Assembly (NCBI GenBank): GCA_027491355.1
Contig: JAIXWI010000041.1
Location: 91,627-132,916 of the forward strand
Reading direction: 5' to 3'
DNA from: Bacteroidota bacterium
GTDB taxonomy: Bacteria; Bacteroidota; Bacteroidia; UKL13-3
Length of the DNA: 41,290 nucleotides
The notes under the pieces were generated by a model, which did no database searches, was not told the DNA's origin, and saw nothing but the letters and a program-made list of their open reading frames with translations. Position numbers and translations under genes: made by a program. Position 1 is the first letter of the stretch, and each line of letters opens with the position of its first letter. Of this stretch, positions 40,883-41,290 are shown piece after piece.

Positions 40883-40913
40883 TTTGTAATATCTGATTCC
40901 TGTTCTACATTTG
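40883..40913 (+). promoter_or_regulatory. promoter of tRNA-His
   Basis: TTTG (40883-40886) and TACATTTG (40906-40913), with 19 nt between TTG and TACATTTG, match the Bacteroidota -33/-7 consensus. Transcription would start near 40918, about 33 nt before the tRNA. A 7-bp stem (40918-40924 with 40937-40943) lies in the leader. Confidence 0.6.
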
Positions 40914-40950: not shown

Positions 40951-41028
40951 GGTGGTTTTAGCTCAGTTGGTTAGAGCGCCTGATTGTGGTTCAGGAGGTC
41001 GTGGGTTCGAGCCCCATATTCCACCCCA
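40951..41028 (+). tRNA. tRNA-His (anticodon GTG), CCA encoded
   Basis: The cloverleaf folds by eye: D-arm GCTC/GAGC, anticodon stem CCTGA/TCAGG with loop TTGTGGT (anticodon GTG at the centre), variable loop AGGTC, T-arm GTGGG-TTCGAGC-CCCAT with one G-T pair. The extra 5' G (40951) pairs with C at 41025, the special G-1:C73 identity pair of tRNA-His, and CCA is encoded at 41026-41028. Oddity: acceptor pairs 5-68 and 6-67 are both U-U, so the stem has a tandem mismatch. Flanked by a matching promoter upstream and a palindromic terminator downstream. Confidence 0.95.
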
Positions 41029-41033
41029 AAAAT

Positions 41034-41061
41034 AAAAAGGTCAGATGCATCTGACCTTTTT
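41034..41061 (+). terminator. perfectly palindromic rho-independent terminator between tRNA-His and CRISPR array
   Basis: A 28-nt perfect palindrome (half AAAAAGGTCAGATG, then its complement) ends in a T-rich run (TTTTTTGTTTTTT), and its minus strand also ends in T-rich sequence (TTTTTATTTTT). It can therefore terminate in both directions, isolating the tRNA from the array. Confidence 0.85.
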
Positions 41062-41156
41062 TGTTTTTTAATATTAAAGTAAACCATTTGCTTTCAAATT
41101 GTATCTTTGGCTTAAATCCAACAACTGTCTTGGTCACATTCAAATCATATCGTTTG

Positions 41157-41185
41157 TTGTGATTTGCTTTCAAATTGTATCTTTG
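41157..41185 (+). promoter_or_regulatory. promoter inside CRISPR repeat 2
   Basis: TTG (41157-41159), 18 nt, then TATCTTTG (41178-41185) is an exact fit to TTG-N17-19-TAnnTTTG. Transcription would begin about 4-6 nt later, still in the last part of the repeat, reading into spacer 2 and the next repeat. Confidence 0.6.
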
Positions 41186-41232
41186 GCTTAAATCCAACAA
41201 CTTGGACACTTATATTACGCCAACACTCGTAG

Positions 41233-41261
41233 TTGTGATTTGCTTTCAAATTGTATCTTTG
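41233..41261 (+). promoter_or_regulatory. promoter inside CRISPR repeat 3
   Basis: Identical to that in repeat 2: TTG (41233-41235), 18 nt, TATCTTTG (41254-41261). It would drive the spacer that begins at 41278 and leaves the window. Confidence 0.6.
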
Positions 41262-41290
41262 GCTTAAATCCAACAACCATAAATTTTAAA

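What the first reader, a model, noticed from the sequence alone, without database searches (positions are those of the whole stretch)
41156..41277. Every intact CRISPR repeat contains a complete Bacteroidota promoter
Repeats 2 and 3 contain TTG-N18-TATCTTTG, an exact match to the phylum's -33/-7 consensus. It is oriented so that transcription would start near the repeat's 3' end and run through one spacer into the next repeat. In Neisseria meningitidis type II-C, each repeat is known to carry its own promoter, giving crRNAs whose 5' ends need no processing. Here the same logic seems to be built from a different promoter grammar, the primary sigma factor of Bacteroidota. If general, the unusually long 46-47-nt repeats of this phylum may be long because they must hold a whole promoter as well as the tracrRNA-pairing region (the 5' part). 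The minus strand of the repeat does not contain the motif.
Basis: partly seen in the sequence, partly recalled or inferred. Interest (0 to 1): 0.78.

Follow-up and report, generated by a model that had tools for sequence, protein, structure and literature searches.

The report
CRISPR repeats carrying their own promoter
Each intact repeat of this bacterial immune-memory array appears to carry its own switch for making a guide RNA; this is known in other bacteria and was suggested for two relatives, and here the missing half of the switch is found in many Bacteroidota, although no RNA was measured.

Summary
The two intact repeats (41156-41201, 41232-41277) read TTG-N18-TATCTTTG; a 5'-degenerate copy (41080-41125) keeps TATCTTTG but lost the TTG. 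The array belongs to a cas9-cas1-cas2 locus with a tracrRNA on another contig of the genome.

The promoter reading is well supported by comparison, not by RNA. Of 61 distinct long II-C repeats, 40 carry TAnnTTTG (at least 5/6) at the consensus spacing, against 9% in shuffles; with any TTG it is 44/61, against 0/33 repeats from other cas1 loci. TAnnTTTG is the commonest of 4096 patterns in the long repeats' 3' half. The anti-repeat match mostly stops before its TTTG. Decayed first repeats lose the tracrRNA-pairing part but mostly keep the box. External promoters are not in excess around 39 arrays.

Ten 36-nt repeats also hold the element, and in long repeats the extra ~10 nt lie downstream of the predicted start, so length is not needed to hold the promoter. 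The predicted start leaves ~12 nt of repeat before the spacer, so a processing-free 5' end does not follow.

Repeat-borne promoters are known in II-C; for Flavobacterium the TTG half was proposed in print. This is a variant of a known kind.

The parts
40884..40913 (+). candidate tRNA-His promoter, TTG-N19-TACATTTG: the same promoter grammar before a neighbouring gene (assignment inferred from position)
   Evidence: scan; tRNA
40952..41028 (+). tRNA-His (GTG), upstream neighbour of the array
41033..41069 (+). intrinsic-terminator-like hairpin (13-nt arms, TGCA loop, T-rich tail), 10 nt before the first repeat copy; could stop read-through from the tRNA
41080..41125 (+). first (trailer-end) repeat copy, positions 1-6 degenerate (TTG lost), rest intact
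41102..41109 (+). -7 box TATCTTTG kept in the degenerate copy; predicted start 41114
41126..41155 (+). spacer 1 (30 nt)
41156..41201 (+). intact repeat 2
41157..41179 (+). repeat positions 2-24: the part matched by the tracrRNA anti-repeat
   Evidence: L007
41157..41159 (+). TTG, candidate -33 element, repeat 2
41178..41185 (+). TATCTTTG, -7 element, repeat 2
41190..41190 (+). predicted transcription start (box at -12 to -5), repeat 2
   Evidence: box position from PMC9723704
41202..41231 (+). spacer 2 (30 nt)
41232..41277 (+). intact repeat 3
41233..41235 (+). TTG, candidate -33 element, repeat 3
41254..41261 (+). TATCTTTG, -7 element, repeat 3
41266..41266 (+). predicted transcription start, repeat 3
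41278..41290 (+). start of spacer 3, cut by the contig end
   Evidence: contig C1 ends at the window end

Best explanation
This is the trailer end of a type II-C array in which every intact repeat is a small crRNA gene. Repeat positions 2-30 hold a primary-sigma (TTG / TAnnTTTG) promoter; transcription starts near position 35, runs through the rest of the repeat and the spacer into the next repeat, whose first ~23 nt pair with the tracrRNA. So the first half of the repeat has two uses: guide handle (RNA) for the spacer upstream and promoter (DNA) for the spacer downstream. The tracrRNA has its own promoter-like sequence of the same kind, set so that its predicted +1 is about the first paired base. 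SHOWN by sequence: motif, spacing, conservation, no excess of external promoters, orientation, decay pattern. INFERRED: that RNA polymerase starts there, and how the RNA is trimmed.
For: Box at the right place: 40/61 distinct long repeats >=5/6 at N17-20, 19/61 at 6/6; 300 shuffles gave mean 9% (max 21%) and 0.7%; >=5/6 holds after clustering (41 clusters 53% vs 10%, max 21%; 18 clusters 41% vs 9%, max 32%). Unanchored search: TAnnTTTG ranks 1 of 4096 patterns in the long repeats' 3' half (85% with <=1 mismatch, any spacing there). Control: 0/33 repeats from other cas1 loci, either strand, vs 44/61 long II-C repeats with any TTG. Not explained by tracrRNA: in 51 of 58 long-repeat loci the anti-repeat match ends at position 26 or before; in this genome at 24. 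Selection: in 25 independent nearest pairs, 20/150 changes in the six fixed box columns vs 83/275 at 31-41 (p=8e-5) and 31/125 at 18-22. Decayed first copies: 33 of 35 breakpoints at or before position 22; 18 of 22 copies whose consensus has a box keep it. Polarity: first copy below 95% identity in 32/59 arrays, last copy in 0/59. External promoters: 0/39 5' flanks at 6/6, 5/39 at >=5/6 vs 6.5 expected. Leader-side terminators on the crRNA strand 27/58 vs 12/58 opposite. Here a terminator-like hairpin ends 10 nt before the first copy. RNA from elsewhere: eight F. columnare reads running toward the leader (PMC8092290, passages).
Against: No 5' ends were measured in this genome or, in the passages I read, for a TAnnTTTG-bearing repeat. 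21/61 long and 17/27 short repeats lack the box at N17-20. 16/61 long repeats have a 5/6 match on the minus strand at the same spacing, 10/61 with any TTG. At the loosest clustering exact matches are 4% vs shuffle mean 0.8% but maximum 12%. In short repeats TAnnTTTG ranks 2nd (1st clustered) with one mismatch, but 12th (5th) as exact match. Decayed first copies keep the box but usually lose the TTG: 3 of 22 have one at 17-21 nt, so either -33 is dispensable or those copies are inactive. Over all 452 related pairs, unanchored, the contrast is small: 0.44 at 23-30 vs 0.56 at 31-41, and 0.40 at 18-22. Upstream terminators were not enriched (5/58 vs 7/58).
Confidence: 0.82

Rival explanations
1. 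The TATCTTTG stretch is conserved because it pairs with the tracrRNA or is read by Cas9, not because it is a promoter.
For: In four short-repeat loci (L089, L094, L097, L105) the match to the anti-repeat runs to or within one base of the repeat end, over a GATCTTTG box in L097 and L105. In 7 of 58 long-repeat loci the match ends at position 27 or 28, 28 being the last base of the query used.
Against: In 51 of 58 long-repeat loci the anti-repeat match ends at 26 or earlier; here it ends at 24, before TTTG at 27-30. The predicted tracrRNA start lies at about that point (52/58 loci have a -7-like box just upstream, no shuffle control made).
Confidence: 0.07
2. The 3' half of the repeat is kept for spacer integration by Cas1-Cas2 at the leader end; the box match is a by-product of shared ancestry in AT-rich repeats.
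For: New spacers enter at the 3' end of II-C arrays (PMC12080349, passages), next to this half; repeats share descent; with 18 loose clusters the >=5/6 signal (41%) only modestly exceeds the shuffle maximum (32%) and the exact-match signal does not (4% vs 12%).
Against: First (trailer) copies, far from the integration end, still mostly keep this half while the other half decays. The phylum's promoter consensus ranks first of 4096 patterns in long repeats. Repeats of other cas1 loci lack it.
Confidence: 0.1
3. One external promoter transcribes the whole array and the internal boxes are silent.
For: Usual design outside II-C; the authors of PMC5006608 report no potential promoter in Riemerella repeats and several in the leader (passages).
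Against: By II-C polarity that leader lies 3' of the array, so a promoter there pointing inward would give antisense RNA (inferred; not tested for Riemerella). No excess of promoters in 5' flanks or leaders of 39 long-repeat arrays. Here a terminator-like hairpin stands 10 nt upstream. PMC5006608 screened leaders with BDGP, which is made for eukaryotic promoters (my knowledge).
Confidence: 0.08

Closest known systems
Type II-C arrays of Campylobacter jejuni (PMC3656092, passages) and Neisseria meningitidis (Zhang et al. 2013, recalled), one promoter per repeat
   Same: cas9, cas1, cas2, tracrRNA, a promoter in each repeat reading into the next unit
   Different: There an extended -10 box (GGTAAAAT in C. 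jejuni) ends the repeat and starts lie at spacer position five. Here a Bacteroidota -7 box lies mid-repeat with predicted start 12 nt before the spacer.
Flavobacterium columnare II-C array (Hoikkala et al. 2021, PMC8092290, passages)
   Same: TTG in the repeat proposed as -33; eight reads support transcription toward the leader
   Different: 36-nt repeat; the passages I saw name only TTG, no -7 box.
Flavobacterium psychrophilum Fp2Cas9 array (PMC10309648, abstract and passages)
   Same: 46-nt repeats, transcribed; TTG 35 bp upstream of each spacer called a repeat-encoded promoter
   Different: In the passages seen TAnnTTTG is named for the cas9 gene promoter, not for the repeat.
Degenerate 'extra repeat' of II-C arrays (PMC12080349, passages)
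   Same: Most mutations of the first repeat lie in its first 15 nt; terminators upstream; the authors suggest it must keep promoter function
   Different: The search terms bacteroid, flavobact and capnocytophaga gave 0 occurrences in its main text; no Bacteroidota promoter motif in the passages seen.

Membership tests
Type II-C CRISPR-Cas locus | cas9, cas1, cas2 only, with type II Cas1 | tested here: met
   L007: TIGR01865 Cas9 3.8e-157, TIGR03639 Cas1 8.2e-86, TIGR01573 Cas2 1.6e-19, adjacent ORFs. That no further cas gene belongs to the locus was judged from the ORF list of L007:8000-15304 only.
Type II-C CRISPR-Cas locus | tracrRNA with anti-repeat | tested here: met
   Minus strand upstream of cas9, matches repeat 2-24
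Type II-C CRISPR-Cas locus | Degenerate repeat at the 5' (transcription) end, leader at the 3' end | tested here: met
   Window copy 1 degenerate; repeats point toward cas2 on C7. Joining of C1 and C7 is inferred.
II-C arrays with a promoter in each repeat | Promoter elements inside the repeat | tested here: met
   TTG-N18-TATCTTTG, comparative tests
II-C arrays with a promoter in each repeat | Primary transcript 5' ends, one per unit | not testable with these tools
   No RNA data at hand
C. jejuni / N. meningitidis layout | -10 box at the repeat 3' end with start inside the spacer | tested here: not met
   Predicted start leaves 11-13 nt of repeat before the spacer in all 40 long repeats with a box
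Bacteroidota primary-sigma promoter | TAnnTTTG -7 box | tested here: met
   6/6 in this repeat
Bacteroidota primary-sigma promoter | TTTG near -33 | tested here: inconclusive
   GTTG: 3 of 4; its conservation is confounded by the repeat's fixed terminus; PMC7366714 states that -33 could not be identified in F. johnsoniae RNA-seq data

The most novel reading that the evidence does not exclude
The extra ~10 nt of long Bacteroidota repeats do not hold the promoter; they lie downstream of it and place the start plus the first 11-13 transcribed nt inside constant sequence. Each crRNA gene would then start identically whatever the spacer, insulating guide dose from spacer sequence, whereas in C. jejuni and in the ten 36-nt repeats with a box the start lies in or within 3 nt of the variable spacer. 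The repeat's first 30 nt would be read twice: as RNA handle and as DNA promoter.
Probability: 0.3. Interest if true: 0.62.

Novelty: new variant of a known kind. Interest (0 to 1): 0.45.

Why it matters
It gives a concrete, testable promoter for crRNA production in a phylum for which I found little array RNA data. It would reconcile a paper that found no repeat promoter in Riemerella with others that named only TTG in Flavobacterium. It shows how one short repeat could serve tracrRNA pairing and promoter function at once, and offers a reason for the extra length of these repeats. It matters for use of these Cas9s: a foreign host without this sigma grammar may not read the native array.

Tried and rejected
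Length as container for the promoter: rejected. Ten of 27 short repeats carry a >=5/6 box at N17-20, and the first 33 nt of 39/61 long repeats already contain a TTG plus box.

TTG conservation as evidence: rejected. GTTG heads repeats with and without the box, and a GTTGTG-like start was a condition for entry.

-7 split over repeat end and spacer in the 36-nt families ending TAGATT, TACATT, GATATT: TG as the first two spacer bases is not in excess (7/157, 6/116, 16/296).

Substitute -33 upstream of decayed first copies: 3/22.

Upstream terminators as a general feature: not enriched with my criteria (5/58 vs 7/58). A hairpin-like stretch just downstream of the last repeat on C7 was seen by eye but not called by that script.

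Control choice: PF01905 and PF05107 gave 2/198 and 9/247 genomes and were not used as such. Cas1 was used: 40 of its best-scoring places were fetched by score; absence of cas9 beside them was not tested; 33 distinct repeats of 28 nt or more came out.

Rows dropped: of 103 arrays (repeat >=35 nt, >=3 copies) 3 lacked a GTTGTG-like start and were dropped. Orientation was set by GTTGTG; a cruder anti-repeat half-test agreed with clear margin in 53 arrays, disagreed in 12 (9 short, 3 long) and was indecisive in the rest. Of 61 long repeats, 58 entered the anti-repeat count: one had no match and two (L164, L166) matched a full stray copy. Eleven genomes with Cas9 hits were not fetched (cap).

Full report
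WHAT IS THERE. The window ends inside a CRISPR array: three 46-nt copies at 41080, 41156 and 41232 with 30-nt spacers. Copies 2 and 3 are identical and contain TTG-N18-TATCTTTG; copy 1 has TAAACC for GTTGTG, so it lost the TTG but kept the box. The contig ends with the window. Another contig of the same genome (C7, L007) ends in the same repeat (one copy cut, three complete) and carries cas9, cas1 and cas2 (TIGR01865 3.8e-157, TIGR03639 8.2e-86, TIGR01573 1.6e-19). I infer that C1 and C7 hold the two ends of one array. Repeats then point from the tRNA-His side toward cas2: degenerate copy first, leader last, the II-C polarity described in PMC12080349 (passages). A terminator-like hairpin (41033-41069) ends 10 nt before the first copy, which leaves no room for a separate promoter between them.

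tracrRNA. Upstream of cas9, on the minus strand of L007 (about 9952 to 9931), lies an anti-repeat that matches repeat positions 2-24. Upstream of it stands TTTG-N18-TATATTTG (box at 9963-9956, read; spacing); with the box at -12 to -5 (PMC9723704, passages) the predicted +1 is opposite repeat position 23. The TTTG of the repeat's own box (27-30) is thus outside the pairing.

HOW RARE. A lone TTG-N17-21-TAnnTTTG is cheap: 4.9 expected per shuffled window, 11 distinct boxes found. So I tested relatives. Cas9 (PF18541) was found in 61 of 395 genomes of the phylum and 81 of 395 of the class; I fetched 60 + 60 regions, leaving 11 hit genomes unfetched, plus 16 named loci and L007. A script found 103 arrays with repeats of at least 35 nt and three copies; 3 were dropped for want of a GTTGTG-like start; 100 arrays gave 88 distinct repeats, 61 of 44 nt or more and 27 of about 36 nt.

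RESULT. In long repeats 40/61 match TAnnTTTG in >=5 of 6 places at N17-20 after TTG (2-4), and 19/61 in all six; 300 shuffles of the part from position 18 to five from the end gave 9% (max 21%) and 0.7%. After single-linkage clustering of the 3' parts the >=5/6 figures are 53% vs 10% (41 clusters) and 41% vs 9%, shuffle maximum 32% (18 clusters); exact matches at 18 clusters are 4% vs 0.8%, within the shuffle maximum of 12%. Searching all 4096 six-base patterns of the same shape in the 3' half with no prior, TAnnTTTG ranks first in long repeats, exact or with one mismatch, clustered at 80% or not; in the 27 short repeats it ranks 2nd (1st clustered) with one mismatch and 12th (5th) exact. The reverse strand has 5/6 matches in 16/61 long repeats but 6/6 in none. 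Among 33 distinct repeats from 40 other cas1 loci, none on either strand has TTG-N17-20-TAnnTTTG at >=5/6, against 44/61 long II-C repeats (10/61 on their minus strand) when any TTG counts; control repeats are shorter (mean 33 nt), but the first 33 nt of long repeats still give 39/61. Variants TAnnTTAG, TAnnTTCG and TAnnTTTA and shifts to N21-23 occur in several others.

SELECTION OR DESCENT. In 25 independent nearest pairs the six fixed box columns differ in 20/150 cells, positions 31-41 in 83/275 (p = 8e-5) and 18-22 in 31/125; over all 452 related pairs with no anchor the contrast is smaller, 0.44 at 23-30 vs 0.56 at 31-41 and 0.40 at 18-22. First copies: of 59 arrays with both ends present, 32 have a first copy below 95% identity, none a last copy. 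Of 61 first copies inspected (long and short repeats), 35 are cut at position 3 or later; 33 of the 35 cuts lie at or before position 22, and 26 of the 35 show no change to the right of the cut. Under cuts spread evenly over 3-33 this has a chance of 4e-5 (rough, since cuts beyond about 33 could hardly be seen). Of 22 such copies whose consensus has a box (N16-24), 18 keep it; 3 have a TTG at 17-21 nt. So decay removes tracrRNA pairing and the TTG but mostly spares the box. That fits the suggestion in PMC12080349 that the extra repeat must remain a promoter, provided the -7 box alone can suffice. [quoted passage not shown] johnsoniae.

ALTERNATIVES. tracrRNA pairing does not explain the box: in 51 of 58 long-repeat loci the anti-repeat match, sought with the first 28 nt, ends at position 26 or earlier. 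52 of these 58 loci have a -7-like box just upstream of the anti-repeat, most often 4 nt away (20 of 52), and where a TTG stands at N16-21 its spacing is mostly 18-20 (29 of 36) (no shuffle control): the same grammar in the same loci. An external promoter is not supported: in 39 long-repeat arrays the 200 nt upstream have 0 complete promoters and 5 near ones (6.5 expected), and leaders pointing inward 0 and 3 (4.5 expected). Leader-side terminators on the crRNA strand are commoner than on the other strand, 27/58 vs 12/58 (p = 0.006); upstream ones are not (5/58 vs 7/58).

LENGTH AND 5' END. Ten 36-nt repeats hold a >=5/6 box at N17-20. In the 40 long repeats with a box, 11-13 nt of repeat from the predicted +1 onward precede the spacer; in the ten short ones 1-3 nt. 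So the extra length lies after the start. In C. jejuni starts are at spacer position five and the -10 box ends the repeat (PMC3656092, passages).

LITERATURE. Nine paper searches, with passages seen in PMC8092290, PMC10309648, PMC12080349, PMC5006608, PMC9367070, PMC10281378, PMC9723704, PMC7366714, PMC5704556, PMC5608340 and PMC3656092. Repeat promoters in Flavobacterium II-C were proposed on TTG alone; PMC5006608 says none were found in Riemerella. I saw no text naming TAnnTTTG in the repeat, in this open-access library and these searches only. Zhang et al. 2013 is recalled, not read.

VERDICT. Observation confirmed; promoter reading likely (0.82); a variant of a known kind. Transcription itself remains unmeasured.

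Noticed in passing
L007:9930-9984 (minus strand) and 52 of 58 long-repeat loci: A -7-like box sits just upstream of the anti-repeat on the tracrRNA strand, most often 4 nt away (20 of 52), so the predicted tracrRNA +1 is about the first base that pairs with the repeat; the handle duplex may need no trimming on the tracrRNA side.
   Followed up: partly
L084, L085, L087, L088, L090, L093-L096, L107-L109, L111-L114: 36-nt II-C repeats ending TAGATT, TACATT or GATATT have no >=5/6 -7 box at N17-20. How these arrays are transcribed is unclear.
   Followed up: partly
L040, L047, L054, L078: Long repeats that carry TA(A/G)CTTAG at N23 in place of TAnnTTTG at N18; a lineage-specific box variant or spacing.
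   Followed up: no
L122: 57-nt repeat, the longest found, with a TTCTTTAAATTTACAG stretch far from the 5' end.
   Followed up: no
L164, L166: A near-complete repeat copy lies outside the main array, perhaps a second array or an isolated copy.
   Followed up: no
G480:C8, G515:C237, G550:C85, G347:C81, G584:C92, G565:C2: cas1 hits in open frames of 752-881 aa, possibly reverse transcriptase-Cas1 or other fusions; domains not checked.
   Followed up: no
L007:14993-15013 (minus strand reading): A hairpin-like stretch with a T run about 27 nt downstream of the last repeat, seen by eye and not called by my terminator script.
   Followed up: no
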